Virus record (IMG/VR): IMGVR_UViG_3300030116_008164
Span: 1-50,193 of that record
DNA: 50,193 nt
Strand: one strand, 5' to 3'
Source: a virus
The notes beneath the pieces are model-generated. The model saw nothing but the letters and a program-made list of their open reading frames with translations. It did no database searches and had not been told where the DNA came from. The position numbers and the translations under genes are program-made. This document shows, piece after piece, positions 21,619-37,887 of this stretch. Every line of letters starts with the position of its first letter. Positions within the stretch are counted from its first letter, which is position 1.

Positions 21619-22425
21619 ATGAATCCTAAAATTGGTATAGGCATTGTTACATGCAATCGTGAAAATTTCTTTAGAAAATGTCTAGAGAGTGTTGTAAATT
21701 CTAAAGCTGATATAATTGTAGCAGTTAATGATGGTAAGCCTTTAGATCCTAATATAAAATACCTTAAAAAAATAAACTGTATACAACATGAAACAAATAA
21801 AGGTGTAGGTATATCTAAGAATGATGCAATGAAATTTTTAGTAAATGCTGGATGTGAACATATTTTTATTATTGAAGACGATATTATAATTAAAGATAGC
21901 GATATTTATAACAAATATATTAATGTTGCTAAGAACTCTGGTATATGGCATTTAATGTATGCTTATCATGGTCCAGCTAATAAGATGCCTAATAAAGAAC
22001 CTAACCCAAGAAAAGTAATAACTTATGAAGATGGTACGTCTTTATCTTTAAATAGGCACTGCGTGGGTGCATTTTGTTACTATCATAAAAATATTTTAAA
22101 ACATGTCGGATATATGGATGAAACTTTTGTTAATGCTTGGGAGCATGTTGAACATAGTTATAGATGTGTTAAAAATGGTCTTTTACCAGGATACTGGTGG
22201 TGGCCTGATGTAGGTAATAGTACGGAGTTATTAGATGAACAGGCTTGTAGCGAAGATAATTCTACTATTAGACCTAGAGATGATTGGCAAAAAAATATTC
22301 AAGAAGGAGCAGAGTATTTTGCAAGTAAGCATACCTACTCTCCAATAGCAGTTCCTGATCTACCAGGCGATAAGGTAGTTGAAGTACTTGAAAAAATTAA
22401 TAAACATTATAGTAAAGATGTGTGA
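21619..22425 (+). CDS. GT2-type (GT-A) glycosyltransferase
   Basis: A 268-residue GT-A glycosyltransferase: N-terminal IGIGIVTCNRENFFRKCLES is the typical GT2 start, and HIFIIEDDIII supplies the DxD-like metal motif (EDD). A KGVGISKNDAMKFL segment matches the usual donor-binding helix. It opens the 16-kb glycan cluster behind an early promoter. Acceptor and sugar are unknown; a surface polysaccharide or LPS-like glycan is the likely product of the cluster. Confidence 0.88.
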   Translation: MNPKIGIGIVTCNRENFFRKCLESVVNSKADIIVAVNDGKPLDPNIKYLKKINCIQHETNKGVGISKNDAMKFLVNAGCEHIFIIEDDIIIKDSDIYNKYINVAKNSGIWHLMYAYHGPANKMPNKEPNPRKVITYEDGTSLSLNRHCVGAFCYYHKNILKHVGYMDETFVNAWEHVEHSYRCVKNGLLPGYWWWPDVGNSTELLDEQACSEDNSTIRPRDDWQKNIQEGAEYFASKHTYSPIAVPDLPGDKVVEVLEKINKHYSKDV

Positions 22426-22855: not shown

Positions 22856-23153
22856 AGAATATTACAAACATTATCTTACATTACATAAAAATAAAAATTG
22901 TAGACGTATGCATGTACTCGGACAATTAGTAACTATTTGTTTTGTAATAAATGTTGCTTGTGTATCTTATATAAAAGGTATACAATATGTACCATTACTT
23001 CTTTTGAGCCCATTTATAGTTTATCCGTTTGCATGGACAGGTCATTATTTGTTTGAGAAAAATAAACCAGCTGCATTTAAGGACCCTATTAAAGCTAAAT
23101 TATGTGACTGGATTATGTTATATGATATTATAAAAGGTAAAATTAAGTTGTGA
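22836..23153 (+). CDS. Mpo1-like / DUF962 membrane protein
   Basis: A 105-residue protein matching the DUF962 family (yeast Mpo1/YGL010w), whose characterised members are iron-dependent dioxygenases in 2-hydroxy fatty acid alpha-oxidation. Visible motifs: YYKHYLTLHKNKNCRRMHVLG near the N terminus and GHYLFEKNKPAAF in the second half, with the His residues expected for iron binding. Two hydrophobic segments (about 28-45 and 50-66) suggest membrane association. It overlaps both neighbours. Its presence in a phage sugar operon suggests lipid work, for example on a lipid-linked glycan or lipid A, but this is inference. Confidence 0.75.
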   Translation: MKKQTLKEYYKHYLTLHKNKNCRRMHVLGQLVTICFVINVACVSYIKGIQYVPLLLLSPFIVYPFAWTGHYLFEKNKPAAFKDPIKAKLCDWIMLYDIIKGKIKL

Positions 23154-23677
23154 GTGTTGCTTATAACATTAATGATATTCCTGGGCTAACGCTCATAAGA
23201 CCCAAACTCTTTAAAGATAATCGAGGGGAAAATTTTGAAGGTTTTGATACAAAAAATTTTTCCAATATAATAAAACCAGACATTACATTACGCAAAGCTT
23301 TTAAACATAAAAGGTTTATTTTAGATACATTCTCAAAGTCTAAACAAAATGTTTTTAGAGGTCTTCATGGTGATAATAAAACATGGAAACTAATAACTTG
23401 TTTATATGGAGAAATATTTTTTATTGTTCTCCATCCAAAAACTAAAACAGTTGCTAAGTTTAAATTAGATAGTAAAAATAGAGATCAAGTTTTAGTACCT
23501 AATGATTGTGTTAATGGACATTATTGTATTAGTGATGAATGTCTTTTTAGCTATAAAATGACAGAACATTATGGCGGTATAAAAAGTCAATATACCATAA
23601 AATGGCATGATAAAAAATACAATTTTAACTGGCCGTTTGACATAACAAATGCTATAATATCTGACAGAGATAATTAA
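23150..23677 (+). CDS. RmlC-like dTDP-sugar 3,5-epimerase
   Basis: A 175-residue cupin-type epimerase starting at GTG 23150. The pattern GLTLIRPKLFKDNRGENFE, the FRGLHGD segment (RGLHxQ in RmlC), and the C-terminal VNGHYCISDECLFSYKMTEHY fit the RmlC family, which epimerises 4-keto-6-deoxy sugars at C3 and C5. No RmlA or RmlB is seen in this window, so the sugar nucleotide may come from the host or from outside the window. Followed by an SDR after one base. Confidence 0.85.
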   Translation: MSVAYNINDIPGLTLIRPKLFKDNRGENFEGFDTKNFSNIIKPDITLRKAFKHKRFILDTFSKSKQNVFRGLHGDNKTWKLITCLYGEIFFIVLHPKTKTVAKFKLDSKNRDQVLVPNDCVNGHYCISDECLFSYKMTEHYGGIKSQYTIKWHDKKYNFNWPFDITNAIISDRDN

Positions 23678-23678
23678 A

Positions 23679-24620
23679 ATGAGTAAAGTTCTTATAACAG
23701 GAGGTGCGGGTTATATTGGCAGTACACTTACGAGGATGCTTTTAGAGCGTGATAATGAAGTAACTGTTATTGATAATCTTATGTATGGACAGTCTTCTTT
23801 AACTAATTTATGTTCATATAAGACGTTTAATTTTATTGAGGGTGATGTAAGAGATGAAGATTTATTAGAAGAGCAAGTTAAAAAGCATGATGTAATTATA
23901 CCGTTAGCTGCTATTGTAGGCTTTCCAGCCTGTGAAAAGGATAAAGAATTAGCAACGGCAGTTAACTATAAACATGTATGGAATATTTGTAAGTGGTCTT
24001 CTCCTGACAAAAAATTAATTTATCCTAATACAAATAGTGGTTATGGTGTTGGAGAGGGGGATACATTATGTACTGAAGAAACACCATTAAGCCCTATCTC
24101 GCATTATGGGAATACTAAATGTAACGCCGAGGCTAATATACTCAGTAAGGGAGGTATTTCATTAAGACTAGCGACAGTATTCGGTATGTCACCACGTTTT
24201 AGAAATGACTTGCTTGTTAATGATTTTGTTTATAGAGCATTTGATGATGGGTTTATTGTTTTATTTGAAAAACATTTTAAGCGTAATTTTGTACATGTAG
24301 TAGATGTTTGTGATGCATTTATATATATGATAAATAATTACGATAAAGCAAAAGGAGAAGCATATAATGTCGGTCTTTCATCTGCTAATTTAAGTAAACT
24401 TGAGTTATGTGAAAAGATTAAAGAGTATGTACCTAATTTTGCTATTTTATCAGATGATATCAATACTGATCCAGATAAAAGAAACTATATAGTGTCTAGT
24501 GAAAAAATTGAAAAGCTTGGATGTAAAGCCCGTGTTTCACTTGATGATGGTATTCAAGAGCTTTTAAAAGCCTACCCAATGATCCGCAAAGTCAAAAATA
24601 GCAATTACACTAACTTGTAA
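23679..24620 (+). CDS. NAD-dependent sugar epimerase/dehydratase (SDR)
   Basis: A 313-residue extended SDR. The Rossmann motif GGAGYIGS (residues 8-15) and the catalytic YGNTK (Y-x3-K) are visible, with an NFVHVVDV segment typical of nucleotide-sugar epimerases. The exact reaction (4-epimerase, 4,6-dehydratase or reductase) cannot be fixed. It overlaps the aldolase gene by one base and follows the RmlC-like gene. Confidence 0.88.
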   Translation: MSKVLITGGAGYIGSTLTRMLLERDNEVTVIDNLMYGQSSLTNLCSYKTFNFIEGDVRDEDLLEEQVKKHDVIIPLAAIVGFPACEKDKELATAVNYKHVWNICKWSSPDKKLIYPNTNSGYGVGEGDTLCTEETPLSPISHYGNTKCNAEANILSKGGISLRLATVFGMSPRFRNDLLVNDFVYRAFDDGFIVLFEKHFKRNFVHVVDVCDAFIYMINNYDKAKGEAYNVGLSSANLSKLELCEKIKEYVPNFAILSDDINTDPDKRNYIVSSEKIEKLGCKARVSLDDGIQELLKAYPMIRKVKNSNYTNL

Positions 24621-25267
24621 TGAACTGGTACGGACCAAAATCACAAATTGTTCACTTTGGGAAGCACCTATATAATAAAAAATTAGTTACAGGTTATGAT
24701 GGCAATATTAGCTTCAAAAAAGAAGATGGTACATATCTTGTAACTAAAACAGGAATTTGTAAAAAGTTTATTCAAGAGTCTGATATTATTAATGTTAATA
24801 AAGATGGTACAATAATTTCGGGACCTGGTAAGTGCACTACAGAATTTTCAACACATACATCATGTTATGACGCCCGGCCGAATGCTACTTATGTTGTACA
24901 TGCGCATCCTCTAAAAGCAACCTCTCTGACTTTTATGGATAGAGAATATTTGTTATGTAAAAATATTGTACCTGAAGTTACAAGTCAAATTGGTCCAATA
25001 CATACAGTTCCTTATTTTACACCTGGATCAGAAGAGTTAGCCACTGCAGTACAGGAAGTACTTGTATATAATACAGATTGCAATTTTATAATGCTTAAGC
25101 AGCACGGTATTATAGGTATTGGTACTAATTTAATACAAATTTGTATGCATATTGAAAAGATAGAATACCTTTCAGAAATTATATTTAATACAAATTTTGT
25201 ACCAAGAGAGTTAACTGAACTTGAAGTTAAAGATCTTAAAAAATACAAATATCCTACCTTGAAATAA
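24620..25267 (+). CDS. Class II aldolase/adducin-family protein
   Basis: A 215-residue zinc enzyme of the AraD/FucA/MtnB superfamily. The zinc histidines are visible as HAHP and KQHG, and the TEFSTH segment supplies the usual catalytic acid and a further His. GYDGNIS matches the phosphate-binding N-terminal loop. Members act as sugar-phosphate aldolases, epimerases or dehydratases; the substrate is unknown. In a glycan operon it might make or break a sugar chain precursor. Confidence 0.88.
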   Translation: MNWYGPKSQIVHFGKHLYNKKLVTGYDGNISFKKEDGTYLVTKTGICKKFIQESDIINVNKDGTIISGPGKCTTEFSTHTSCYDARPNATYVVHAHPLKATSLTFMDREYLLCKNIVPEVTSQIGPIHTVPYFTPGSEELATAVQEVLVYNTDCNFIMLKQHGIIGIGTNLIQICMHIEKIEYLSEIIFNTNFVPRELTELEVKDLKKYKYPTLK

Positions 25268-25293: not shown

Positions 25294-26814
25294 ATGAGTT
25301 TAGATGTATTGTTAATCCATCCTAATGCTGCTAAGCGTATATACCAAGAGCTTAGTAATACACTTAACGGTATTGAGCAACCGATATGGGCCGGGATGAT
25401 TGCTACATATTTACGGGATAGAAATGTTAAAGTAGATATTTTAGATTGTGAAGCTAATGGATTAACAGTTGATGAAGCTTATGAGAAAGTAAAAGAGCTT
25501 AATCCTAAGATAGCTTGTATTGTAGTTTACGGGCAGCAACCATCTGCATCAACTCAAAATATGGTAGGTTCACTTGAATTAAGTCTTCGTTTAAGCGATC
25601 TAGATATACAGAGAGCTTATATCGGTGCACATCCTACTGCATTACCTCAAAAAACTATTGAAGATGATCCGGGAGCTTTTGTATGTAAAGGTGAAGGAGT
25701 ACGTACTTTAGAAGTATTAAATCAAGTAGATGATTATACTGATTATAATAAATTAAGAGATGTACCTGGTCTTTGTTTTCATAACGAAGAAACTAAACAA
25801 ATTGAAGTTAATCGCCCGGCAATGCTTATTGATGATCTTGACGGTGAGATGGGTGGCGTTGCATGGGATTTACTTCCTATGGAAAATTATCGTACAGCAA
25901 ACTGGCACAGCTGGACCAATAATAATGAACAGCAACCATTTGCTTCTATCTATACAAGCTTGGGATGCCCGTTCCAATGTACGTTCTGCATGATTAATGC
26001 TCCTTTTAATGAAGGAGATAATAAGAACAATAAAATTAGAACATGGTCACCGGATAATATTATAAAACATTTTGATTATTTTGCATCTTTAGGTATTAAA
26101 AATCTCAAAATAGCAGATGAACTCTTCGTTCTTAAACCTAATCACTTTTTAAAAATATGTGAAATGTTAAAAGAGAGAGATTATGGTTTTAATATTTGGG
26201 CTTATGCACGTATTGATACAGTTAGAGAAAAATATTTAGAAGCTTTAAAAGATGCAGGAGTTAACTGGTTAGGATTAGGTATTGAATCTGCAAATAAAAA
26301 TGTAAGATTTGAAGTTACTAAAGGTAAATTCCAAGAAACTAATATTAAAGATATTGTTAGTAAGATTGGTGAAGCAGGTATTAATACAACAGGTAATTAT
26401 ATCTTTGGACTGCCCACTGATACTCATGAAACGATGCAAGAAACATATGAATTATCTCGCGAGCTTGATACTGAGTATGTAAATTATTATTGTGCAATGG
26501 CATATCCAGGCTCTCAGCTACATAGAGATGCAGTAGCTAATAATCCTAAATTATTACCTGAAAATAATGGTGTAGGGTGGATTGGTTATTCACAACATTC
26601 ATATGAATGTTTTCCTCTTGCTACTGATAAACTTGCTAACTGGGAAATTCTTAAGTTTAGAGACCAAGCTTTTTTAAATTATTTTAACGATCAAAATTAT
26701 ATTAAGAAAACTACAGATAAATTTGGACCTAAATTTAAAGAACAGATTAACAATATGTTAGCAGCTACAGATAATAAACCTCTTAAAAGAAAAATAGTTA
26801 GCGAAAATAGTTGA
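25294..26814 (+). CDS. B12-binding-domain radical SAM protein
   Basis: A 506-residue protein. The N-terminal 190 residues look like a cobalamin-binding Rossmann-type domain (LLIHPNAAK, then VVYGQQPSAS and AYIGAHPTALP), as in BchE-type enzymes, though a clear DxHxxG cobalamin motif is absent. The radical SAM core has TSLGCPFQCTFCM (CxxxCxxC), followed by LGIESANKNV and GNYIFGLPTDTHETM. Such enzymes methylate or rearrange unactivated carbons. Substrate unknown; the glycan cluster context suggests a sugar or lipid carrier. Confidence 0.88.
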   Translation: MSLDVLLIHPNAAKRIYQELSNTLNGIEQPIWAGMIATYLRDRNVKVDILDCEANGLTVDEAYEKVKELNPKIACIVVYGQQPSASTQNMVGSLELSLRLSDLDIQRAYIGAHPTALPQKTIEDDPGAFVCKGEGVRTLEVLNQVDDYTDYNKLRDVPGLCFHNEETKQIEVNRPAMLIDDLDGEMGGVAWDLLPMENYRTANWHSWTNNNEQQPFASIYTSLGCPFQCTFCMINAPFNEGDNKNNKIRTWSPDNIIKHFDYFASLGIKNLKIADELFVLKPNHFLKICEMLKERDYGFNIWAYARIDTVREKYLEALKDAGVNWLGLGIESANKNVRFEVTKGKFQETNIKDIVSKIGEAGINTTGNYIFGLPTDTHETMQETYELSRELDTEYVNYYCAMAYPGSQLHRDAVANNPKLLPENNGVGWIGYSQHSYECFPLATDKLANWEILKFRDQAFLNYFNDQNYIKKTTDKFGPKFKEQINNMLAATDNKPLKRKIVSENS

Positions 26815-26838: not shown

Positions 26839-27861
26839 ATGGCTATCGATCATATGAAAGAAGTTAATAAAAAAGTTGATACCTCAGAAGCGAGTGATAA
26901 AAACTTTCATTCGCCAACTCCAGCACAAGCAGTACCTCATGGCTTTCCTAATGAAAGACGCGGTGATATTCCACCTGAGCTTCGTAAAAAGACTACTATC
27001 TTAACTCTCAACAACCAAAAGAAAAAGGGTATTAAGACTGTAGGTGTAACTGCTTACGATTATCCACAAGCTCTCTTAGCTGATAAAGCTGGAGTAGATT
27101 GGATCCTTGTAGGGGATTCTATTGGTATGACTACATTAGGTTATAAAACTACCATCCCAGTAACAATGGATGATATGTTACCTCATTGTACTGCAGTATG
27201 GAGAGCTAATCAAAGTGCTTTCTTAGTTGGCGATATGCCGTTTATGTCTTACCAGATTTCAGATGAACAAGCTATTGAGAATGCAGGCAAGTTTATTGTT
27301 AAAGGTATGGACGCTGTTAAAGTAGAAGGTGCTATGTATGACAGGATTGGTGCAATTGCTAAAGCAGGTATTGTAGTTATGAGCCACTTAGGTCTTACAC
27401 CACATACACGAGCTAAGCTAGGTGGTTATAGAGTACAAGGTAAGACTAAAGAGTCAGCTGATATTATTCTTGAACAAGCTCTTAGACTTCAAGATGCAGG
27501 AGTATCTTTTTTACTTCTAGAAGCTATGCCGAGAGAAGCTGGTCAATATGTTGCTGAGCAACTTGATATTCCAATTTATGGAATCGGAGCAGGTGATAAA
27601 GTAGACGGTCAGCTTGTAATTCAGCATGATTTAACAGGTATGTTCTTTGAGTTTAAATCAAAGTTTGTTAAAAGATATTGTGAAGCAGGTAAACTTATTG
27701 AAGATTCTCTTAAGGATTATGCTCAAGAGGTAAGAGAGGGTAAATTCCCCGGACCAGAGCAGTTCTATGAGATTAAAGATGAAGAACTTGATAAACTTAT
27801 GGCAGATGAGCGGTGGAAGTATGAAACTGACCCAGAAAAGACCCGTTCACATAGTTTTTAA
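26839..27861 (+). CDS. panB: PanB-like ketopantoate hydroxymethyltransferase
   Basis: PanB adds a hydroxymethyl group from methylene-THF to 2-oxoisovalerate. Metal ligands D93 (VGDSIGM), D132 (GDMPFMSY) and E163 (KVEGA) and the catalytic base E228 (LLLEAMP) are all present, with the GIGAG and DGQLVIQHD segments. The protein (340 residues) has an N-terminal extension of about 60 residues. Since the -10 box abuts ATG 26839, the ATG at 26854 (MKEVNKKVDTSEAS) may be the real start. It sits inside a glycan cluster directly before an acetolactate-synthase-like gene; it may serve CoA synthesis, or act on another keto acid for the glycan. Confidence 0.9.
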   Translation: MAIDHMKEVNKKVDTSEASDKNFHSPTPAQAVPHGFPNERRGDIPPELRKKTTILTLNNQKKKGIKTVGVTAYDYPQALLADKAGVDWILVGDSIGMTTLGYKTTIPVTMDDMLPHCTAVWRANQSAFLVGDMPFMSYQISDEQAIENAGKFIVKGMDAVKVEGAMYDRIGAIAKAGIVVMSHLGLTPHTRAKLGGYRVQGKTKESADIILEQALRLQDAGVSFLLLEAMPREAGQYVAEQLDIPIYGIGAGDKVDGQLVIQHDLTGMFFEFKSKFVKRYCEAGKLIEDSLKDYAQEVREGKFPGPEQFYEIKDEELDKLMADERWKYETDPEKTRSHSF

Positions 27862-27865
27862 TTAG

Positions 27866-29737
27866 ATGAAAGTAGCAGATTATATAATTAACTTCCTTGC
27901 TGATAAAGGAATTGATAAAATGTTTGTTGTCTATGGTGCAGCAAATGGAGATATTATTGATGCCTTTACACGCACAGATAAAACTGAGTATGTAGCTGTA
28001 ATGCATGAACAAGGAGGCGGCTTTGCTGCTGAAGGTTATGCAAAAGTCTCTGGACGTCCAGGTGTAGCTATTGCAACTAGCGGTCCAGGTGGACAAAATA
28101 TGCTTACATCTATGGGAAATTGTTTTTATGACTCTATTCCATGTATTTTTATTACAGGACAGATTAATTCTAGATTTCTGCGACCAGATCCTTCTATTAG
28201 ACAGGTAGGTTTTCAAGAAACAGACATTGTTGCTATGGCAAAGCCAGTAACAAAACATGCTGTTATGTTAACAGATCCAGAAATGGTAAGGTATGAGGTG
28301 GAAAAAGCATGGCACCTCGCAACAGAAGGTAGGCCTGGACCTATTCTTCTGGATGTACCACTTAATATTCAAAAAATGGATATTAATCCTGAAGAGCAAG
28401 ACGGGTTTGAAGTTAATGTTTATGAAAGAGAGTATAATTTAAAGTTAGTTGATGAAAAGATTGATCAACTCATTTATGATATTGTACATTCTGAAAGACC
28501 ATGTATGCTTATTGGTGGAGGTGTAAGACTAGCTGATGCAGTTGAAGAGTTTAGAGAGCTTGGGAGACTATTAAAGATACCATGTTTTCCAACTTGGAAC
28601 GCATTAGATGCAGTTTCTTCCGATTATGAATATTATGGAGGTAGAGTTGGTACTTATGGAGGTGCTGGTCGTAACTTTGGTATTCAAAATTCAGACTTAT
28701 TAATGGCAGTTGGTTGTAGATTATCAGGTAGAATTACTGGTGGTAATGTACACTCCTTTGCTAGAGAGGCTAAGAAGTATGTTGTTGATGTAGATAAAGC
28801 CTTACTACAGAAGAAACTTCAGCAAGTACCTTTTGATGAAAATATCTATTGCGATGCTAAAGTATTTTTAACTCGTATGATTAAAAGAGTTAAAGAGCTA
28901 AAAGAGCCTGTAGCAAATAGCGGTTGGTTAAATCCTGACGGTGAAAGTAATACAGGGGCAGATCCCTTTCCAGATTTTTCTAAATGGGTAGAAGTTGTAA
29001 TGGGATGGAAAAAGAAGTATGATCCAGTACAACCAGAAATGTATGATCAAAAAGAAAATGTACATCCGTATGTTTTCTTTAGAACTCTTTCTGAAGAAAT
29101 GGATAGAAATGCAGTACTAATTGGTGACTGTGGTGGTAATATTGTTGCCAGTAACCATTCTTTTGAGACTAAAGATCAACAGCGTAACTTAACTAATAAT
29201 GGTAATTCTCCTATGGGATTTTCATTTGCTGCTGTTATGGGTTGCTACTTAGCTGACCCATCTCGTCAATCAGTTTGTACTATCGGTGATGGTGGCTTTA
29301 ATATGAATATTCAAGAACTTCAAACGTTCGTTAATTATAATATTAAAGCTAAGACATTTATTGTTAATAATCATATCTACGGTATTACAAAAGCATATCA
29401 AGAAACAAACTTTAATGGTAGAGCTGAAGCATGTGGACCGAAAGGATATAATCCACCTGACTTTGTATCTATTGTAAAAGCATATGGTATTAAAGTTGTT
29501 GAGATTAAGAACCATAAAGAGCTTAGAGAAAAAATTAGAGAGGTACTCGACTATGACGGGCCAGTAGTGTGTGATGTTAATTGTCATGAGTTTCATACGT
29601 ATGAACCTAAGATTATCGGATGGGAAACACCTATTGAGGACATGTATCCATACGTACCTAGAGATGAGTTTCTTAAAAATATGCAAATTAAACCTTTAGA
29701 TAACTGGAAAAATCCTTTCCAACCAGACGTAAAATAA
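27866..29737 (+). CDS. Acetolactate-synthase-like TPP enzyme
   Basis: A 623-residue thiamine diphosphate enzyme of the IlvB/YerE type. The catalytic Glu48 is in VMHEQGG, the TSGPGGQN and GFQETDIV segments match acetolactate synthases, and the TPP/Mg motif is GDGGFNMN...NN in the last third. An insertion of about 40 residues (around LNPDGESNTGADPFPDF) precedes the C-terminal domain. It lies 4 bases after panB and 1 base before a ColD/E1-type dehydratase. Acetolactate synthesis is one option; acetyl transfer onto a 4-keto sugar, as by YerE in yersiniose synthesis, fits the neighbour better. Confidence 0.88.
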   Translation: MKVADYIINFLADKGIDKMFVVYGAANGDIIDAFTRTDKTEYVAVMHEQGGGFAAEGYAKVSGRPGVAIATSGPGGQNMLTSMGNCFYDSIPCIFITGQINSRFLRPDPSIRQVGFQETDIVAMAKPVTKHAVMLTDPEMVRYEVEKAWHLATEGRPGPILLDVPLNIQKMDINPEEQDGFEVNVYEREYNLKLVDEKIDQLIYDIVHSERPCMLIGGGVRLADAVEEFRELGRLLKIPCFPTWNALDAVSSDYEYYGGRVGTYGGAGRNFGIQNSDLLMAVGCRLSGRITGGNVHSFAREAKKYVVDVDKALLQKKLQQVPFDENIYCDAKVFLTRMIKRVKELKEPVANSGWLNPDGESNTGADPFPDFSKWVEVVMGWKKKYDPVQPEMYDQKENVHPYVFFRTLSEEMDRNAVLIGDCGGNIVASNHSFETKDQQRNLTNNGNSPMGFSFAAVMGCYLADPSRQSVCTIGDGGFNMNIQELQTFVNYNIKAKTFIVNNHIYGITKAYQETNFNGRAEACGPKGYNPPDFVSIVKAYGIKVVEIKNHKELREKIREVLDYDGPVVCDVNCHEFHTYEPKIIGWETPIEDMYPYVPRDEFLKNMQIKPLDNWKNPFQPDVK

Positions 29738-29738
29738 T

Positions 29739-30926
29739 ATGAATGTACATTCATTAATGGAAGAGAATATCGACCGGTCAGATATCGATGAAGTAATTAG
29801 TTTTCTTCAACAGGATCCTTTGCCGCGACTAACTAACGGACCTAAGGTAGAAGAATTAGAAGCTGAATGGTCAAAATGGTTGGGTGTAAAGTATAGCGTA
29901 TTTGTTAATTCAGGTACAGCGGCGAATTATATGACTATGCATCTATTAAGATATTTGCATGGACCATGTGATATTATTGTACCACCTCTTACATGGGTAT
30001 CGGATATTGCAAGTGTTATTAATAATCAACATAATCCCATATTTGTTGATATTAATTTGAGCAATTTATCTTTTGATATTGATAAGCTTAAAAAAGCAAT
30101 AACACCTCATACTAAAGCTATTTTCTTAACTCACGTATTAGGTCTTAACGGTATTACAGATGAGTTGTTAAGTTTATGTGCAGAAAAGAATATTTTACTT
30201 ATTGAAGATGTCTGCGAATCTCATGGCGCAACATATAGAGATATGAAGGCTGGTACAATAGGTCAAATAAGCAATTTTAGTTTTTACTTTGCACATCATA
30301 TGTCTACTATTGAAGGTGGTATGGTGTGTACAAATAATATTGAATATTATGACTTATTGAGATCATTTAGATCGCATGGTATGGTACGAGAATGTAAAAG
30401 AGAAACATTTAAAGACTGTGTCAAGCATGCACACCCAGATTTAAATCCTGATTTTATATTTTTATCTCCCGCATATAATATGCGAAGTTGTGAGATAAAT
30501 GCAGTTTTAGGTTTAAGTCAAATTAAAAAACTTGATGCAAACAATAAAAAAAGACAAGAAAATTTTCATTACTTCTTATCTAATTTAAATAACCAAAAAT
30601 ATATTACAGATTTTAATATTGTTGGTCAAAGCAACTATGCTCTTATTGTAATGCTTAAGCAAGGTGCAACTTTAGCTGAAAGAGATAATATTGAGAATCT
30701 CCTTAATAGACATTGTATTGAGTTTAGACGAGGGTTGTCTGGTGGAGGTAATCAGCTAAGACAACCATATATAGAAAAGTACGGTTTAGAAGTTTCAGAG
30801 GATGTGCTTAAGAACAACTTTGCAAATGTTGAACACGTGCATAATTATAGTTGGTATGTTGGTAACTATCCAACTTTACCTAAAGAGAAAATTGATACTT
30901 TAATTAATTTATTGAATAACGTCTAA
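29739..30926 (+). CDS. PLP/PMP sugar 3-dehydratase of the DegT fold (ColD/E1-like), His in place of Lys
   Basis: A 395-residue DegT/DnrJ-fold protein. The N-terminal FVNSGTAANYM and IEDVCESHGA segments are standard for the fold. Where sugar aminotransferases have the PLP lysine (SFxxxK), this protein has H186 in SFYFAHHMSTIEGG. His at this site is the mark of the 3-dehydratases ColD (colitose) and E1 (ascarylose, yersiniose), which remove the C3 hydroxyl of 4-keto-6-deoxy sugars. It is therefore more likely a 3-deoxygenating dehydratase than an aminotransferase. It is next to a YerE-like TPP enzyme. Confidence 0.82.
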   Translation: MNVHSLMEENIDRSDIDEVISFLQQDPLPRLTNGPKVEELEAEWSKWLGVKYSVFVNSGTAANYMTMHLLRYLHGPCDIIVPPLTWVSDIASVINNQHNPIFVDINLSNLSFDIDKLKKAITPHTKAIFLTHVLGLNGITDELLSLCAEKNILLIEDVCESHGATYRDMKAGTIGQISNFSFYFAHHMSTIEGGMVCTNNIEYYDLLRSFRSHGMVRECKRETFKDCVKHAHPDLNPDFIFLSPAYNMRSCEINAVLGLSQIKKLDANNKKRQENFHYFLSNLNNQKYITDFNIVGQSNYALIVMLKQGATLAERDNIENLLNRHCIEFRRGLSGGGNQLRQPYIEKYGLEVSEDVLKNNFANVEHVHNYSWYVGNYPTLPKEKIDTLINLLNNV

Positions 30927-30927
30927 G

Positions 30928-31869
30928 ATGAACAAATACCTTGTAGTTTTTAATACGTGTGAGATTAACGTACCTAACTTAGAATGGTATATTGAATGCA
31001 TAGATAATCTATTAGATACTGATTATGATAATTTTGACCTGGCTATTTCAGGTTGTATGTTAACTGATAATACTAAAAAAGTACTTTTAGAAAAATATAA
31101 AAATAAAGCTTTCTTTAATTTTATTGATTGTAGGTTACCTGTTAATATTACATTTAATCATACTGTAAATAAGATTGTTGAGAAGGTCGGTCGATATGAT
31201 GGTTATGTCTATTTTGATTCAGGTGTTAATATCGGAGAAGATAAACATTATTTAAAAGAAATAGATGATAGATTTTCAACCGGTAAATATGAAATGGTAT
31301 CAATGCAAACAGATACTGATACTGGTTTTTGGATATTCGGTTTACATGGGTATTTTTATGATCATGATTATGTTGTACCGGTTGGTAAAGCCTGTAATCT
31401 ACATGTAACTTGTTTTGGAGATAAGCTTTTAAAGCAATATAACAAGATACTTCCAGATATCTTCTTAGCATATTGTACTGAATCTGTTTTCTCGTTTATG
31501 ACTGCAGCTTTAGAATCCCGGTGGATTATTATTAAAGATCTTCTTTTGAAACATAAAAAGTCAGTTGATGGTGCATCCGCTGGCTTTGATCATACTGGAC
31601 CAAAAGAGCCATGGAATAATTTATACGGTGGTTTAGATATGCTTGATATTATTAAAGATCCTAGAGCTCATGCTTTAGGGTTAGGGTATGAAGAATGTCA
31701 TGGGATAATGATGCATAACCCAGAAAAATTTTGTGATAGAGGGTTTGCAAAAGAACCTGAATTAAAGAATTATATTAGGGATAAGTTGTTTTTACAAGAT
31801 AATGTTCTTAATTATTCACACATACCATACGAAATTTACTATGAAGATAAGCTTAATAATACCAACTAG
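30928..31869 (+). CDS. Probable GT-A glycosyltransferase
   Basis: A 313-residue protein with a GT-A-like beginning (YLVVFNTCEI, then NLDYDNFDLAISG) and a DxD-like YFDSGVNIGED. The second half contains DHTGPKEPWNNLYGG and many aromatic residues. I do not recognise a specific family; the glycosyltransferase call rests on fold-like pattern and context. It overlaps the next glycosyltransferase by 29 bases. Confidence 0.6.
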   Translation: MNKYLVVFNTCEINVPNLEWYIECIDNLLDTDYDNFDLAISGCMLTDNTKKVLLEKYKNKAFFNFIDCRLPVNITFNHTVNKIVEKVGRYDGYVYFDSGVNIGEDKHYLKEIDDRFSTGKYEMVSMQTDTDTGFWIFGLHGYFYDHDYVVPVGKACNLHVTCFGDKLLKQYNKILPDIFLAYCTESVFSFMTAALESRWIIIKDLLLKHKKSVDGASAGFDHTGPKEPWNNLYGGLDMLDIIKDPRAHALGLGYEECHGIMMHNPEKFCDRGFAKEPELKNYIRDKLFLQDNVLNYSHIPYEIYYEDKLNNTN

Positions 31870-32551
31870 AAAACGTGTTTCCAATGTAAAGCGGTTGGTT
31901 GAGTCTGTTTATAACACAGCGCAGGATATTAAAAATATACAACTAATGTTTTATGTTGATGATGATGATCAAGATTCTATTGATTTTTTTGATAAGGAAA
32001 AAGCTAATCCTAAATTTACACATTTAATTGATACAAAGGTAGTGGTTGAGCCACGTCAAGAAAGATTTGGTGAAACAAATAATATCTTATATAGAGCAAG
32101 TGATGGAGATATATTAATGCTTGGTGCTGATGATATTGCATTTAGAACTAAAAATTGGGACCATATTGTTAGAGAAGAATTCGGTAAAGAAGCTGATAAC
32201 CTTCTTTTAGTCTTTGGTTATGATGGCATCCAGCCTCCAGGTACACTTGCAACACATTGCTTTATATCAAGAAGAGGTGCTGATATTGTCGGTTATGCCT
32301 CACCTGGAGATTTTGGATACAATTATGCTGATAATTGGATGACAGAATTATATAGACAAATTGATAGATTAAGATATGTTCCTATGCATATTGAGCATAT
32401 GCATTGGGGAGTTGGTAAAGCCGAATATGATGAAACATATAGATTAGGTTCAGACGCTCCTCACGATGAAAGTAAAGCAATATGGGAAGATAAAGATAGA
32501 CTTACTGCAGATATTAAGAAGCTACAAGATAAAGTAGGCACTGTAGACTAA
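31841..32551 (+). CDS. GT2-like glycosyltransferase
   Basis: A 236-residue GT-A protein; ATG 31841 (MKISLIIPTRKRVSNVKRL) gives the classic GT2 N terminus and lies inside the end of the previous gene. YVDDDDQDS and ILMLGADDIAF supply DxD-type metal motifs. Acceptor unknown. Followed after one base by the HldE-kinase-like gene. Confidence 0.85.
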   Translation: MKISLIIPTRKRVSNVKRLVESVYNTAQDIKNIQLMFYVDDDDQDSIDFFDKEKANPKFTHLIDTKVVVEPRQERFGETNNILYRASDGDILMLGADDIAFRTKNWDHIVREEFGKEADNLLLVFGYDGIQPPGTLATHCFISRRGADIVGYASPGDFGYNYADNWMTELYRQIDRLRYVPMHIEHMHWGVGKAEYDETYRLGSDAPHDESKAIWEDKDRLTADIKKLQDKVGTVD

Positions 32552-32552
32552 C

Positions 32553-33326
32553 ATGAAGCCGATACTACTACTAGGAGACTCATGTAGAGATGAGTTTGTG
32601 TATTGTGATTGTAAAAGATTATGTCCTGAAGCTCCTGTCCCTGTTTTAGATAAAAAAGAAATCGTTAGGACTAACGGGATGGCAGGTAATGTTTGTAAAA
32701 ACCTAAGATCCTTTACACATAATTGTATCTTTTTAACTAATAAAAATTATACTGATATTACAAAGACGAGATATGTAGATAGAAAAACTAATCATATGTT
32801 TATACGTATTGATACTAGTGTACAATCTACTAAGCTCACAAGCAGACAACGTAATAGTATAGTATTTGATGATTATTCTGCCGTTATTTTATCTGACTAC
32901 GATAAAGGTTATTTAAGTGAAGAAGATATAGCTTATATTTCTAGCAAACATCCATTGACTTTTTTAGATACAAAAAAGTTATTAGGAGATTGGGCAAACG
33001 ATATTTCATTTATAAAGATAAACAGGCCGGAAACTTTAAATACAAAACATACATTAACGGATAAGTTAGAAAGCAAACTTATTACAACTTGTGGAGATGA
33101 AGGTGCTTCATATCGCGGTAAACAATATGCGGTAAACCCTGTTGAAGTTAAAGATGTATCAGGTGCTGGAGATACATTTCTGGCTACTTTGGTATACACT
33201 TATGTTCGAACAAATGATATAGATATAAGTATCGAAGCAGCCAATCAAGGAGCTACATATGTTGTGCAACGTAAGGGCGTTTCATGCGTTGATGGTTCTA
33301 TAATAAGCAAACTTATAACAGTATGA
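32553..33326 (+). CDS. PfkB-family kinase like the HldE N-terminal domain
   Basis: A 257-residue ribokinase-fold protein. The N terminus LLLGDSCRDEFVYCDCKRLCPEAPVPVLD matches the start of HldE heptose kinases, GMAGNVCKNL matches their GGAANVA region, and DVSGAGDTF is the PfkB catalytic motif with the base Asp. HldE kinase phosphorylates heptose-7-phosphate at C1. It is about 60 residues shorter than typical. The matching adenylyltransferase is a separate gene at 35980, so together they form a split HldE for ADP-heptose. Overlaps the next gene by 4 bases. Confidence 0.82.
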   Translation: MKPILLLGDSCRDEFVYCDCKRLCPEAPVPVLDKKEIVRTNGMAGNVCKNLRSFTHNCIFLTNKNYTDITKTRYVDRKTNHMFIRIDTSVQSTKLTSRQRNSIVFDDYSAVILSDYDKGYLSEEDIAYISSKHPLTFLDTKKLLGDWANDISFIKINRPETLNTKHTLTDKLESKLITTCGDEGASYRGKQYAVNPVEVKDVSGAGDTFLATLVYTYVRTNDIDISIEAANQGATYVVQRKGVSCVDGSIISKLITV

Positions 33327-34255
33327 GTAAGACATTATACATATATGAACAAGCGTCGCCTCATGTACATGATAGCTCAGAAAGGTACAAAGGTTGTGTA
33401 CCTCTAAGCGAGTCCGGCATTAAAAAACATTTTACTGTCGTTAATAATCCTGATGCAGCAGATTATTTATATGTTGGTCAGATACGAGAAGATAGTAATG
33501 TACCTCTTTTTAAATCAGACGGTACTGAGTTTGAATATTATAAAGAACATTCATCCCGACATATAGCAGATATGGAAGGAGAGGGAGGTTGGGATATTCC
33601 AGAATGGTTACATAAATGTATTTTAACTACAATGGGACCGAGAAAAGAGTTTGACGTATATAAGCTTTTTACAAGACCAACATTCTCAACTATGATGGTT
33701 GATATGATGGAAGACCATCGTACGTTTGAATTTCCTGAGAAAAAAGGATATGGGTTTAGAGGTTGTATAAATCATAAAAGCAGAGATGTAATGTTTCAAG
33801 CGTTGGATATACCTTTATTAGACAATAAAAGAATAAGAAGAGAAGCTTATGTAAATTCAGGATGGGCTGGGTCTATCCCATCCGGGCATGATATACATAG
33901 AATATATGAAGAGTTAATGCTTAAGCATCCATTGTCTTTATGTCCAAGGGGCTCAGGTATTGATACAACAAGAATAATAGAAACATGTTTTTATAATAGA
34001 GTACCTGTCATGGTAACAGACAAAGATTTTTATCTTGTTGGTGAAGATGAATATGACGTGGATTTTTGTTTTAGAATAGTAGGAGATCTTTCGCCTGAAG
34101 ATATGGCAAATGAGTTAGTTAAAGTATATAATACTGATATAGGAGAATTAGAAGAAAGAGGAAAAGCAGCACGCAAATATTTTGATACAGTAATAAGAAA
34201 ATATTTCGAAGACCCTACTTTATATTTTATAAATTGGTTAGAAAGAAATAAATGA
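33323..34255 (+). CDS. Exostosin-like glycosyltransferase
   Basis: A 310-residue GT-B-like protein. The C-terminal segment LCPRGSGIDTTRIIETCFYNRVPVMVTD is the typical nucleotide-sugar region of exostosin (GT47-like) enzymes, with the key Glu in IIETC. The N-terminal half is less conserved. It lies between the HldE-kinase-like gene and an SPASM radical SAM gene, with 4-base overlaps on both sides. Confidence 0.75.
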   Translation: MSKTLYIYEQASPHVHDSSERYKGCVPLSESGIKKHFTVVNNPDAADYLYVGQIREDSNVPLFKSDGTEFEYYKEHSSRHIADMEGEGGWDIPEWLHKCILTTMGPRKEFDVYKLFTRPTFSTMMVDMMEDHRTFEFPEKKGYGFRGCINHKSRDVMFQALDIPLLDNKRIRREAYVNSGWAGSIPSGHDIHRIYEELMLKHPLSLCPRGSGIDTTRIIETCFYNRVPVMVTDKDFYLVGEDEYDVDFCFRIVGDLSPEDMANELVKVYNTDIGELEERGKAARKYFDTVIRKYFEDPTLYFINWLERNK

Positions 34256-35457
34256 TTGGCGAAAGTAAAATTTTTAATCCGCAAGCTAAGATCTATGCAA
34301 ATGCAGATAGAGTATTAGATTTTTTAGATAAAAAAAATCCAGCCCCTATCTTAGTTGAATTTGATCCAAGTAACACTTGTAATCATGGTTGTTATTTCTG
34401 TATCTCTTCTTATATACATCTACCTGAATCTAAAGACTTGGAAACTTATAATAAAACTGTTATGCCGCGTGATATACTGATGGGCGCATGCAAGGATTTT
34501 ATTGATATGGGTGTAAGAGCTATTAATTGGACTGGTGGTGGAGAACCTACAATTAATAAGCATTTAAAGGAAGCAATTGAATATATTGGTACAAACTCTG
34601 ATATAAAGATGGGCATTTTTACTAATGGTACATTAATTGATAAATGGGACATGTTTGATACTATGGTAGATAATATGTCTTGGGTTAGATTTTCTGTTGA
34701 TGCTGGCACTCCAGAAACGTATAATGGTATACGTAGAGCAAAAGGTAATCATGGTTGGGATAAGATGTCTTCTAATCTTTTAAAACTAACCGAGGTAAAT
34801 AATGCAAAAGGTAAGAAGATACAAATCGGTACAGGGTTTGTTATTACTCCTGACACATATAAAGAAATTACAGACTTTGCAAAATACTTTTCTCAATTTG
34901 ATATAGACTATTGTCAATATAAACCTGAAGTAGTAAACAGAGAAAGAGAAGAGGGTGTTCAGAGAGATTTAGACTTTTGGGAAGCTGAAGTGGAACCAAG
35001 GCTTAATGAAGCAAAAGAAATATTGGGTGATAGATTTCAAATTAATGGTTATAAACTAAAAGATCTTATAAATGACAGATCATTATTTGGACGTAATTAT
35101 AAAAAGTGTTTAGGTTCTCAAATACAACCTTGTGTTGGTGCAGATGGTGAGGTATATGTATGTACTAATCACCGCGGATATAAACAATATAGTTATGGAT
35201 CATTACATGAAAAATCGTTTAAAGAAGTCTGGTCAGATATACAAACCAGAGAAAGTGTAATGAATCAAATAGAGAACGTAGAATGCTTTAAAAACTGTAC
35301 GCAACTGTGTAAACCTCACGAAAGTAATAAAGCAGTGTGGAATATTCATGAAGAGTATACTACACTAAAAGGAGAAGAAAAAGATAAAGCTAAGCAGCAT
35401 TATCTTGAAGATGCAGATAAGATAAAATCTGAAATAATACACAGTGAGTTTATATGA
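34252..35457 (+). CDS. Radical SAM / SPASM-domain protein
   Basis: A 401-residue radical SAM enzyme. CNHGCYFC (CxxxCxxC) follows LVEFDPSNT, and NWTGGGEPT is the SAM-binding GGE motif. The C-terminal third has the SPASM-like cysteines: CLGSQIQPCVGADGEVYVC and CFKNCTQLC, for auxiliary Fe-S clusters. SPASM enzymes modify peptides, and some act on sugars or alcohols (dehydrogenation). Substrate unknown; context suggests a sugar. Overlaps both neighbours by 4 bases. Confidence 0.88.
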   Translation: MIGESKIFNPQAKIYANADRVLDFLDKKNPAPILVEFDPSNTCNHGCYFCISSYIHLPESKDLETYNKTVMPRDILMGACKDFIDMGVRAINWTGGGEPTINKHLKEAIEYIGTNSDIKMGIFTNGTLIDKWDMFDTMVDNMSWVRFSVDAGTPETYNGIRRAKGNHGWDKMSSNLLKLTEVNNAKGKKIQIGTGFVITPDTYKEITDFAKYFSQFDIDYCQYKPEVVNREREEGVQRDLDFWEAEVEPRLNEAKEILGDRFQINGYKLKDLINDRSLFGRNYKKCLGSQIQPCVGADGEVYVCTNHRGYKQYSYGSLHEKSFKEVWSDIQTRESVMNQIENVECFKNCTQLCKPHESNKAVWNIHEEYTTLKGEEKDKAKQHYLEDADKIKSEIIHSEFI

Positions 35458-35987
35458 TTATTCTTAAAAATGGTAGAGGACAGCTCGGAGAAGCATTACA
35501 GGCCTACTTATCTAATTTAAAGATTATCCCAACCGAAGATGTGTTTATATATCATACATGGGATATGGATAGCGATAAAAATAACGTTGATGCACAGCGT
35601 GAATGTTTTGCAAAATTTAGGGAGTTTGTACATTTTAATAGCAGAAAAAAAATATTTTATATATCAACATATTCTTCGAAGCATAACTTTTATAACATAT
35701 ATAAACAGCAATGTGAAAGCTATTTAATGCTCCATGGAGATCAAGGATATAATATCAAATTACCTACTTTAACAGGTAAAGGTATATGTGATAAGCTTAG
35801 AAAGGGTTTAGCAAAACCATATGGAGAAATAGAGCTTATGACACCCAAACAAGCTGCGAGAAAAATTTTAAGTATTGTAGAAGAAGTCTTAATGATGGAC
35901 AAAAAAGAACCAATCAGCAAATCATATAGATTGTATGGTACAAAAGTACCAGCCGAATTAGTGGAGGAATTAGTTAAAGATGAATAG
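35454..35987 (+). CDS. Hypothetical protein in glycan operon
   Basis: A 177-residue protein. The N terminus MIILKNGRGQLGEAL resembles the nucleotide-binding start of 4-keto-sugar reductases (G-x-GQLG), and a FYISTYSSKHNFY segment lies mid-protein, so a shortened SDR-like fold is possible, but the usual Y-x3-K is not clear. It overlaps the HldE-C-like gene by 8 bases. Confidence 0.6.
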   Translation: MIILKNGRGQLGEALQAYLSNLKIIPTEDVFIYHTWDMDSDKNNVDAQRECFAKFREFVHFNSRKKIFYISTYSSKHNFYNIYKQQCESYLMLHGDQGYNIKLPTLTGKGICDKLRKGLAKPYGEIELMTPKQAARKILSIVEEVLMMDKKEPISKSYRLYGTKVPAELVEELVKDE

Positions 35988-36372
35988 AGTTATTTTTACT
36001 AATGGGTGTTTTGATATCTTGCATAGGATGCATATTGAACTTTTAAAATTTTGTAAAAGTAGAGGGGATTATGTTGTGGTAGGACTTAATAGTGATGCTA
36101 GTGTTAAAGCCTTAAAAGGAGATAAGCGACCTATTAATAAAGAAGACGATAGAAAGTATGTTCTGGAGTCTTTGAAATTTGTAGATGAAGTAATAATATT
36201 TGAAGAAGAAACACCTTTTAATTTAGTTAAAGAATTAAGACCAGATGAGATTGTTAAAGGTGGTGACTACAAAGTTGAAGATATAGCAGGTCATGAGTTT
36301 GCGCCAGTAGTTCTTTTTAACTATAATAATAGCTATTCAACAACAAAGGCGCTTGAAAAGCTAAATTCTTAG
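35980..36372 (+). CDS. Heptose-1-phosphate adenylyltransferase-like protein (HldE C-terminal domain)
   Basis: A 130-residue cytidylyltransferase-fold protein. TNGCFDILHRMH has the HxGH site as H15-R-M-H18, with Met replacing the usual Gly. GLNSDASVKALKGDKRPINKEDDR and VKGGDY match RfaE/HldE adenylyltransferase domains that make ADP-heptose. The kinase half is encoded separately at 32553. Whether the G-to-M change lowers activity is unknown. Confidence 0.85.
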   Translation: MNRVIFTNGCFDILHRMHIELLKFCKSRGDYVVVGLNSDASVKALKGDKRPINKEDDRKYVLESLKFVDEVIIFEEETPFNLVKELRPDEIVKGGDYKVEDIAGHEFAPVVLFNYNNSYSTTKALEKLNS

Positions 36373-36388: not shown

Positions 36389-36979
36389 ATGATTATTGAT
36401 AATATTGATGTTTACGACGGTAACATAATCCATAACCGATTTGCTTATCAATACTTCAGAGATAAGACTTTACCTATTGGTAATATTCTTGCTTTTAGAG
36501 CTCCTATGAAAGTCGAGACTGAAGGTATGATTGATTATGAAGATGTTTTAAAAGATGATTTTATTTATAGTGATGATGCAATTAATTTTATCTGGGAGAT
36601 TCCAGGCCTAGATAGCTTTGGAGCTGTAGCATGGCAACGACTGTTTAATACTCAGATTGCTAATGTATTATCATCTAACTATCTTAAAGCTCCTATTGAG
36701 GTAGATGGTGATGATTTAATTGTTCATAAGGAACATCAACAAGGTGGTATTGTGCAACCTCATGGTAAATGTAGTGTGAGTATTACGTATACTAAGAGTG
36801 GTGCAGCGTTAGGTCATACAGCAATTAATGTTACTGCAGGCAAGAAAGCTCCTGCGTTTGCATATTCTACTAATCTTACAGACGAACAATGTACTGACTT
36901 CATGAAGAATGCTATTGATATTTTCTATACAATGAATGATGATATGTTTATTGCTACTACGAAAATTATAGCAAAGTGA
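36389..36979 (+). CDS. DUF366-like protein
   Basis: A 196-residue protein that resembles the DUF366 family, found mainly in archaea and in some marine phages, function unknown. Visible conserved-looking stretches: FAYQYFRDKTLPIGNILAFR, VETEGMIDYEDVL, VDGDDLIVHKEH and GHTAINVTAG. It has its own early promoter and overlaps the following SDR by 4 bases. No catalytic motif can be named. Confidence 0.65.
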   Translation: MIIDNIDVYDGNIIHNRFAYQYFRDKTLPIGNILAFRAPMKVETEGMIDYEDVLKDDFIYSDDAINFIWEIPGLDSFGAVAWQRLFNTQIANVLSSNYLKAPIEVDGDDLIVHKEHQQGGIVQPHGKCSVSITYTKSGAALGHTAINVTAGKKAPAFAYSTNLTDEQCTDFMKNAIDIFYTMNDDMFIATTKIIAK

Positions 36980-37887
36980 AGATTTTAGTAACAGGAGCAG
37001 CAGGATTTATTGGTAGTAAGACTGTTGATGTACTTCATGATCTCGGACATGATGTAATTAGTATTGATAACGAGAGTGCTATTTCTAACGAGAAGTTTTA
37101 CTGGCATAAAGAAGTTCGAGGTTGGAAGCATGATATATGTGATGCAGGAGCTATAGATGCTGTTTTTGCATATTATAAACCGGATGCGGTAATGCATTGT
37201 GCTGCACAAGCTAGAATTCAAATTGGATATAATTCTCCGCTTGATACCTATAATACAAATTATATTGGTACTGTTACTCTTTTAGAAGCTTGTGTAGAGC
37301 ATAAATGTAAAAGGTTTGTATTTGCCTCTACTTCATCTTCTTACGGTTTAGCAAATGATATACCATTAAGAGAAGATTATGAAACAGATTGTTTAACTCC
37401 TTATTCTATAAGTAAGGTTGCTGCAGAGAAAGCATGCAAGGATTATCATAAGAATTGGGGATTAGAAACAATGACGTTAAGGTATTTTAACGTATATGGA
37501 GATAGACAACCTATAAAAGGTACGTACGCTCCTGTTGTTGGACTTTTTCATAGACAAAGAGAAGCAGGCAAGCATTTAACTATTGTAGGTAATGGTAACC
37601 AAACAAGAGATTTTACGAATATTGATGATGTAGTTAATGCTAATATGCTTGCACTAACAGGTATATATAAAGATAAAAATTACGGAGAAATCTATAATAT
37701 AGGTACAGGTCAAAATTATTCTATTAATGATGTTGCAAAAATGATCTCACCAAATGGTTCATATATGTATATTGCTCACAGACCTGGCGAAGCTAAAGAT
37801 ACAAGAGCAGATATAACAAAAGCAAAAACTGTTTTAAGCTGGAAACCTACCATCGAGCTGCCACAATGGATTAAAGAAAATTATTAA
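36976..37887 (+). CDS. GalE-like NAD-dependent nucleotide-sugar epimerase
   Basis: A 303-residue extended SDR starting at GTG 36976. Rossmann motif GAAGFIGS, the STSSSYG serine region, YSISK (Y-x3-K), LRYFNVYGDRQ and TRDFTNIDDVV are classic for UDP-hexose or UDP-HexNAc 4-epimerases. It probably closes the glycan block by supplying an epimerised sugar nucleotide. Its stop overlaps the start of the next gene by one base. Confidence 0.9.
   Translation: MKILVTGAAGFIGSKTVDVLHDLGHDVISIDNESAISNEKFYWHKEVRGWKHDICDAGAIDAVFAYYKPDAVMHCAAQARIQIGYNSPLDTYNTNYIGTVTLLEACVEHKCKRFVFASTSSSYGLANDIPLREDYETDCLTPYSISKVAAEKACKDYHKNWGLETMTLRYFNVYGDRQPIKGTYAPVVGLFHRQREAGKHLTIVGNGNQTRDFTNIDDVVNANMLALTGIYKDKNYGEIYNIGTGQNYSINDVAKMISPNGSYMYIAHRPGEAKDTRADITKAKTVLSWKPTIELPQWIKENY

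What the first reader, a model, noticed from the sequence alone, without database searches (positions are those of the whole stretch)
27866..30926. Phage pathway logic for a branched 3-deoxy sugar: YerE-like TPP enzyme beside a ColD/E1-like dehydratase
The DegT-fold protein at 29739 has His186 (SFYFAHH) where aminotransferases have the PLP lysine. This substitution marks sugar 3-dehydratases ColD and E1. Directly upstream, one base away, is an acetolactate-synthase-like TPP enzyme. In yersiniose synthesis E1 removes the C3 hydroxyl and the TPP enzyme YerE adds a two-carbon branch at C4. The two genes together thus suggest a branched 3,6-dideoxy sugar on a glycan directed by the phage. Standard annotation would probably call them aminotransferase and acetolactate synthase and miss this.
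Basis: partly seen in the sequence, partly recalled or inferred. Interest (0 to 1): 0.72.

Follow-up and report, generated by a model that had tools for sequence, protein, structure and literature searches.

The report
Phage pathway for branched rare sugar
A T4-like phage carries a gene set that most likely builds an unusual branched sugar, and it suggests that the widespread viral gene annotated as a vitamin B5 gene (panB) really makes the side-chain building block for that sugar.

Summary
The DegT-fold protein (29739-30926) has His186 at the PLP-lysine site and groups with the 3-dehydratase ColD. The thiamine (TPP) enzyme (27866-29737) belongs to a clade sister to YerE-like ketone ligases, apart from acetolactate synthase. 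In 80 of 80 related viral loci this PanB clade sits beside a YerE-type TPP gene of one of three lineages, with repeated partner switching, and never beside PanC; in a control set of bacterial PanB loci, 24 of 25 had PanC and none such a TPP gene. Cellular YerE-like clusters carry 4-hydroxy-2-oxo-acid aldolase genes instead, and the related enzyme ErwE is reported to use such acids. Best reading: PanB makes a 4-hydroxy-2-oxo acid; the TPP enzyme decarboxylates it and adds the hydroxyacyl unit to the 3-deoxy-4-keto nucleotide sugar made by the ColD-like enzyme. The branch is then probably hydroxylated and longer than the two carbons proposed. Substrates and target glycan are inferred, and no 4,6-dehydratase motif was found in the window. 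Published work reads viral PanB as vitamin B5 metabolism; these data argue otherwise.

The parts
26839..27861 (+). PanB-family (ketopantoate hydroxymethyltransferase) gene of the phage 'sugar-PanB' clade; proposed to make the 4-hydroxy-2-oxo-acid donor
   Evidence: PF02548 320 bits; TIGR00222 272 bits, over its cut-off; E. coli residues D45 D84 K112 E114 H136 E181 kept; clade residues Y200, I214, H142; beside a TPP gene in 80/80 viral loci
27866..29737 (+). TPP-dependent carboligase, sister clade of YerE-like enzymes
   Evidence: trees; AlphaFold model (pLDDT 80) best PDB match JanthE 8rph
29739..30926 (+). ColD-type nucleotide-sugar 3-dehydratase (His186 at the PLP-lysine site)
25294..26814 (+). 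B12-binding radical SAM enzyme, recurrent neighbour of the TPP gene; role unknown (branch or sugar modification)
   Evidence: PF04055 + PF02310; present in 17 viral, 23 Nitrospira and 8 other cellular loci
23679..24620 (+). Extended SDR, recurrent neighbour; TNSGYG site, not a T[DS][EQ] 4,6-dehydratase; candidate reductase or epimerase of the product
23150..23677 (+). RmlC-like 3,5-epimerase; recurrent in the viral loci
   Evidence: PF00908 98 bits; TIGR01221 84 bits, below its cut-off
24620..25267 (+). Class II (FucA-like) aldolase; not seen in the other loci, role unknown
   Evidence: PF00596 132 bits; no hit
32553..33326 (+). HldE-N-like sugar kinase (pfkB family)
   Evidence: TIGR02198 108 bits, below its cut-off; PF00294; in 21 of 80 viral PanB loci
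35980..36372 (+). HldE-C-like nucleotidyltransferase
   Evidence: TIGR02199 157 bits, below its cut-off of 181.5; in 19 of 80 viral PanB loci
36976..37887 (+). GalE-like SDR (TSSSYG site)
   Evidence: TIGR01179 182 bits, below its cut-off
21619..22425 (+). Family 2 glycosyltransferase, candidate for transferring the sugar
   Evidence: PF00535 32 bits

Best explanation
The window of a T4-like phage encodes a module for a C-branched 3-deoxy sugar. (1) The ColD-type enzyme (29739) removes the C3 hydroxyl of a nucleotide-linked 4-keto sugar (inferred from His186 and the tree). (2) The PanB homologue (26839) makes a 4-hydroxy-2-oxo acid by adding a hydroxymethyl group, or another small aldehyde, to a small 2-oxo acid (family chemistry; the actual substrate is inferred). 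(3) The YerE-like TPP enzyme (27866) decarboxylates that acid and adds the hydroxyacyl carbanion to the C4 ketone, giving a tertiary alcohol with a hydroxylated branch of three or more carbons (inferred from ErwE-type donors, phylogeny and gene pairing). (4) An SDR probably reduces the branch ketone, and glycosyltransferases attach the sugar to an unknown glycan, perhaps the host surface or the virion. Steps (1) and (3) are well supported as enzyme types; the PanB-to-TPP link is supported by gene association, not by assay. The nucleotide sugar is unknown.
For: TPP enzyme: the window clade (100/100) is sister to YerE-like proteins (99/96), together apart from AHAS (100/99); the AlphaFold model's best PDB match is JanthE (2e-53) ahead of AHAS (1.5e-49); the AHAS Trp574 position is Tyr511. 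Dehydratase: ColD side of the tree, no E1 cysteines. PanB link: all 80 viral loci of this PanB clade have a YerE-type TPP gene next to them, at most 102 bp away, 42 groups at 95% identity; three TPP lineages; about 10 partner changes on the PanB tree. Control: of 25 PanB loci from random Pseudomonadota genomes, 24 have PanC nearby and none a YerE-type TPP gene. A CPR genome (Harrisonbacteria) has a single PanB, inside this cluster, and no PanC. Donor logic: a cellular cluster RfbF-RfbG-E1-HpaI-TPP-SDR-DmpF-DmpG (L238) and two more with DmpF-DmpG between E1 and TPP; ErwE is reported to use 4-hydroxy-2-oxo acids (PMC12247030); E. coli PanB makes 4-hydroxy-2-oxo acids from many 2-oxo acids and formaldehyde (PMC10127515).
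Against: No activity is shown. PanB keeps its canonical catalytic residues and scores over the PanB cut-off, so classical ketopantoate synthesis is not excluded by sequence. Nitrospira and other cells have a close TPP homologue with a class I aminotransferase and no PanB in the cluster, so PanB is not obligatory. No 4,6-dehydratase motif was found in the 50 kb window (the record may be a fragment). ColD-like and TPP genes are adjacent in few loci; in others they are several kb apart. The 80 viral loci were collected with patterns taken from this PanB clade and ranked by similarity to it, so the 80/80 figure describes this clade, not every viral PanB.
Confidence: 0.68

Rival explanations
1. Yersiniose-type pathway: the TPP enzyme takes pyruvate and adds a two-carbon acetyl branch to the 3-deoxy-4-keto sugar; PanB serves something else.
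For: YerE, the best known member of the sister clade, prefers pyruvate (PMC12247030); a 3-dehydratase is present.
Against: Does not explain PanB beside the TPP gene in 80/80 viral loci across three TPP lineages with partner switching, nor the 2-oxo-acid aldolases in cellular YerE-like clusters.
Confidence: 0.13
2. Vitamin and amino-acid AMGs: acetolactate synthase plus PanB boost branched-chain 2-oxo acids and pantothenate/CoA in the infected cell.
For: PanB is over the NCBIfam panB cut-off; viral pantoate transferase was read this way in a marine viral survey (PMC8940887).
Against: The TPP protein is below the ALS cut-off and outside the AHAS clade. No PanC hit in the 80 viral PanB loci. In three CPR genomes this TPP gene is the only relative found, and in one of them the only PanB lies in the sugar cluster without PanC.
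Confidence: 0.05
3. The ColD-like gene and the PanB-TPP pair belong to two different pathways that share a glycan gene island.
For: The genes are often several kb apart in other loci; S-CAM7 has Gmd-Fcl-ColD-like with no TPP gene in the annotated stretch; some loci with the TPP gene show no ColD-like gene.
Against: His-type dehydratases are found near most of these TPP genes (viral, Nitrospira, CPR, alphaproteobacteria) and no Lys-type DegT was detected near them. E1 plus YerE is the known yersiniose logic.
Confidence: 0.1
4. PanB hydroxymethylates the sugar itself (alpha to the C4 ketone of the 3-deoxy-4-keto sugar), and the TPP enzyme acts separately.
For: The 3-deoxy-4-keto sugar has an acidic CH2 next to a ketone, chemically a possible PanB acceptor (inference).
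Against: PanB family chemistry is on metal-bound 2-oxo acids; K112, E114, H136 and the metal aspartates are all kept. The aldolases found in cellular clusters act on pyruvate.
Confidence: 0.04

Closest known systems
Erwiniose pathway (ErwE, Pectobacterium) and the L238-type cluster RfbF-RfbG-E1-HpaI-TPP-SDR-DmpF-DmpG
   Same: 3-dehydratase plus a YerE-like TPP enzyme plus a gene able to make a 4-hydroxy-2-oxo acid; ErwE is reported to use such acids as donors
   Different: Cells use pyruvate aldolases (HpaI, DmpG) and E1 with CDP sugars; the window uses PanB, a ColD-type dehydratase and no CDP-glucose dehydratase. That L238 is the erwiniose locus itself is not shown.
Yersiniose A pathway (E1 + YerE + reductase)
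   Same: 3-deoxygenation followed by TPP-dependent branching at the C4 ketone
   Different: Two-carbon branch from pyruvate, Fe-S enzyme E1, no PanB
Colitose pathway (ColD); phage S-CAM7 Gmd-Fcl-ColD-like island
   Same: His-type 3-dehydratase on the ColD side of the tree; phage-borne
   Different: No TPP enzyme or PanB in the annotated stretch; Gmd is present there and not found in the window
Bacterial PanB (pantothenate synthesis)
   Same: Family, catalytic residues and probably the basic reaction
   Different: Separate clade (96/84), clade-specific Y200 and I214, beside a TPP gene instead of PanC

Membership tests
ColD / nucleotide-sugar 3-dehydratase | DegT aminotransferase fold with His replacing the PLP lysine | tested here: met
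   His186 aligns to ColD His188; conserved in all homologues that cover the site
ColD / nucleotide-sugar 3-dehydratase | Groups with ColD rather than E1 or Lys aminotransferases | tested here: met
   Tree: window on the ColD side, 100/98; only one Lys-type reference and one E1 were included
ColD / nucleotide-sugar 3-dehydratase | C3 deoxygenation with PMP regenerated from glutamate | not testable with these tools
   Needs an assay
E1 (RfbH/DdhC) | [2Fe-2S] cysteine cluster | tested here: not met
   The Cys motif of 3bcx is absent in the window
YerE-like ketone-accepting TPP lyase | Phylogenetic placement with YerE-like enzymes, apart from AHAS | tested here: met
   Sister clade, 100/99 joint support; JanthE is the only characterised member in the tree, so this is kinship with the group, not membership inside it
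YerE-like ketone-accepting TPP lyase | Adds a decarboxylated 2-oxo acid to a ketone | not testable with these tools
   Needs an assay
Biosynthetic acetolactate synthase (IlvB) | Curated score cut-off and AHAS clade | tested here: not met
   378 bits against a cut-off of 538; outside the AHAS clade; AHAS Trp574 position is Tyr511
PanB (ketopantoate hydroxymethyltransferase) | Family profile and catalytic residues D45, D84, K112, E114, H136, E181 | tested here: met
Pantothenate pathway gene | Genomic company of panC | tested here: not met
   No PanC hit in the 80 viral loci; 24 of 25 control PanB loci have it

The most novel reading that the evidence does not exclude
A large clade of viral PanB proteins, so far read as vitamin B5 genes, is a dedicated donor-making enzyme for branched-sugar synthesis: phages pair it with any of three lineages of YerE-like TPP ligases and with ColD- or E1-type 3-dehydratases to build new hydroxyacyl-branched deoxy sugars, possibly heptose-based. 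No such use of PanB was found in the papers searched.
Probability: 0.62. Interest if true: 0.82.

Novelty: new variant of a known kind. Interest (0 to 1): 0.76.

Why it matters
It turns a common viral 'vitamin B5' annotation into a testable sugar pathway and explains why the viral panB genes examined here lack panC. It gives a donor module (PanB feeding a YerE-like ligase) not found in the papers searched, many ready-made enzyme pairs for making chiral tertiary alcohols, and a concrete route by which aquatic phages could change surface glycans.

Tried and rejected
Chance ORFs or misread frame: rejected, both ORFs recur in related viral contigs. Pantothenate/valine AMG reading: rejected on clade, gene company and CPR genomes. 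E1-type identity of 29739: rejected, no Fe-S cysteines. PanB and class I aminotransferase as alternative donor genes: never together in 38 dereplicated TPP groups (15 PanB, 9 aminotransferase, 14 neither; Fisher p = 0.006), but confounded with virus/cell lineage, so only suggestive. PLSDB search with JanthE gave mostly acetolactate synthases, no use. Canonical PanB patterns in viral contigs found one locus only; the patterns were narrow, so this is not a census. The Microcystis phage record with panB and panC looks like the ordinary pathway and may hold host DNA; not pursued.

Full report
What is there. The window is a virus record with T4-type genes: portal gp20 (42196-44019, PF07230), a DNA polymerase and a ribonucleotide reductase large subunit. 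Between about 21.6 and 38 kb on the + strand lies a sugar-type gene island. The two genes of the finding are real, one base apart, and recur in related viral contigs.

The dehydratase. The 29739 protein is a DegT-fold protein whose best solved relatives are ColD and its mutants (178 bits), then E1. His186 aligns to ColD His188; 3b8x and 2r0t carry N and K there, which fixes which of the two His is meant. All 54 rows from viral and cellular loci near the TPP gene keep it, and 56 of 57 in a later viral set, the last being a fragment. The tree puts the window on the ColD side (100/98), and the E1 Fe-S cysteines are missing. A ColD-like gene also lies in a Gmd-Fcl-ColD-like row in the cultured cyanophage S-CAM7. 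The catalytic His as base and acid, and the ColD and E1 branches of the mechanism, are described in PMC8987622.

The TPP enzyme. It falls below the acetolactate synthase cut-off; its best PDB hit is JanthE, a YerE-like enzyme. In a tree with 18 YerE-like proteins found with JanthE in a phylum sample, AHAS and other TPP paralogues, the window family is a clade sister to the YerE-like clade, both apart from AHAS (repeated with more viral rows). The AlphaFold model (pLDDT 80) matches JanthE best. The YerE-like set was chosen by likeness to JanthE, and only JanthE is characterised.

The missed gene. PanB (26839-27861) ends 4 bp before the TPP gene. In the TPP-based viral loci it is the commonest direct neighbour. 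A separate scan with a PanB alignment gave 80 viral loci; all 80 have a YerE-type TPP gene at most 102 bp away on the same strand. The TPP partners fall in three lineages (50 YerE/JanthE-type, 18 window-type, 12 L216-type), and mapping the partner on the PanB tree needs about 10 changes: for example the PanB proteins of L175 and L176 are 92% alike but have partners of different lineages. As a control, 25 PanB loci from random Pseudomonadota genomes had PanC nearby in 24 and a YerE-type TPP gene in none. The windows differ (about 1.5 kb of flank in the control, 5 kb in the viral set), which does not affect a partner within 102 bp.

Cells. A scan of genome contigs gave 51 loci with this TPP family: many Nitrospira, Pelagibacter, CPR, Rhodospirillales and archaeal MAGs. 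Frequent neighbours are ColD-like, B12-radical SAM, SDR1, HddA/HddC-like heptose kinase and guanylyltransferase, and a class I aminotransferase. Some of these contigs (L053, L080) look like phage DNA in single-cell or MAG assemblies. L072 has Gmd, Fcl, ColD-like, aminotransferase and TPP genes in one stretch. In Harrisonbacteria (L063) the only PanB found in the genome lies in this cluster, and no PanC was found; in three CPR genomes this TPP gene is the only relative found. These are assemblies of unstated completeness.

Donor logic. One cellular YerE-like cluster (L238) reads RfbF-RfbG-E1-HpaI aldolase-TPP-SDR-DmpF-DmpG; L239 and L240 have DmpF-DmpG between E1 and the TPP gene. HpaI and DmpG make or split 4-hydroxy-2-oxo acids (family knowledge). 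[quoted passage not shown] E. coli PanB is a promiscuous maker of 4-hydroxy-2-oxo acids (PMC10127515, PMC7610986, PMC7611260). So PanB in the phages can stand where the aldolase stands in cells. Clade residues Tyr200 and Ile214, shared with the CPR PanB, and Leu212 lie at or next to positions 202, 212 and 214, which those papers mutate to widen substrate range; a changed 2-oxo-acid pocket is therefore plausible, not shown.

What is not known. No T[DS][EQ] dehydratase motif was found in the window; the HldE-like kinase and nucleotidyltransferase hint at a heptose. Other viral loci do carry Gmd-like or RmlB-like dehydratases. The donor, the acceptor sugar, the role of the B12-radical SAM enzyme and the target glycan are open.

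Novelty. The chemistry is a variant of the erwiniose/yersiniose kind. What appears new is the PanB donor module and its spread in phages. A marine survey read viral pantoate transferase as vitamin B5/CoA metabolism (PMC8940887); no paper in the searches joined viral PanB to branched sugars, but the library holds open-licence papers only.

Noticed in passing
window 25294-26814: B12-binding radical SAM enzyme that recurs beside the TPP gene in phages, Nitrospira and CPR; top but sub-threshold matches are HpnJ, PhpK, BchE and AprD4 models.
   Followed up: partly
window 22379-22855: Small protein without a Pfam match that recurs in 12 viral loci of this cluster and in L053.
   Followed up: no
window 22836-23153: Mpo1-like (PF06127) protein, recurrent in 11 viral loci of the cluster.
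   Followed up: no
window 36389-36979: DUF366 protein (PF04017) inside the sugar island.
   Followed up: no
window 34252-35457: Radical SAM/SPASM protein, 59-71% identical in several related viral loci.
   Followed up: no
window 30928-31869 and 31802-32551: Proteins without a Pfam match that recur in the island, possibly glycosyltransferases; the two ORFs overlap by 68 bases as called.
   Followed up: no
L030-L050, L052, L056, L068, L077: Many Nitrospira genomes carry the TPP family in one conserved heptose-type cluster with a class I aminotransferase where phages have PanB.
   Followed up: partly
L053, L080: Contigs binned as Prochlorococcus and Pelagibacter that have the phage gene order; probably phage DNA in the assemblies.
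   Followed up: no
L114 (Synechococcus phage S-CAM7): Gmd, GDP-fucose synthetase and a ColD-like gene in a row in a cultured cyanophage, suggesting a phage colitose-type pathway.
   Followed up: no
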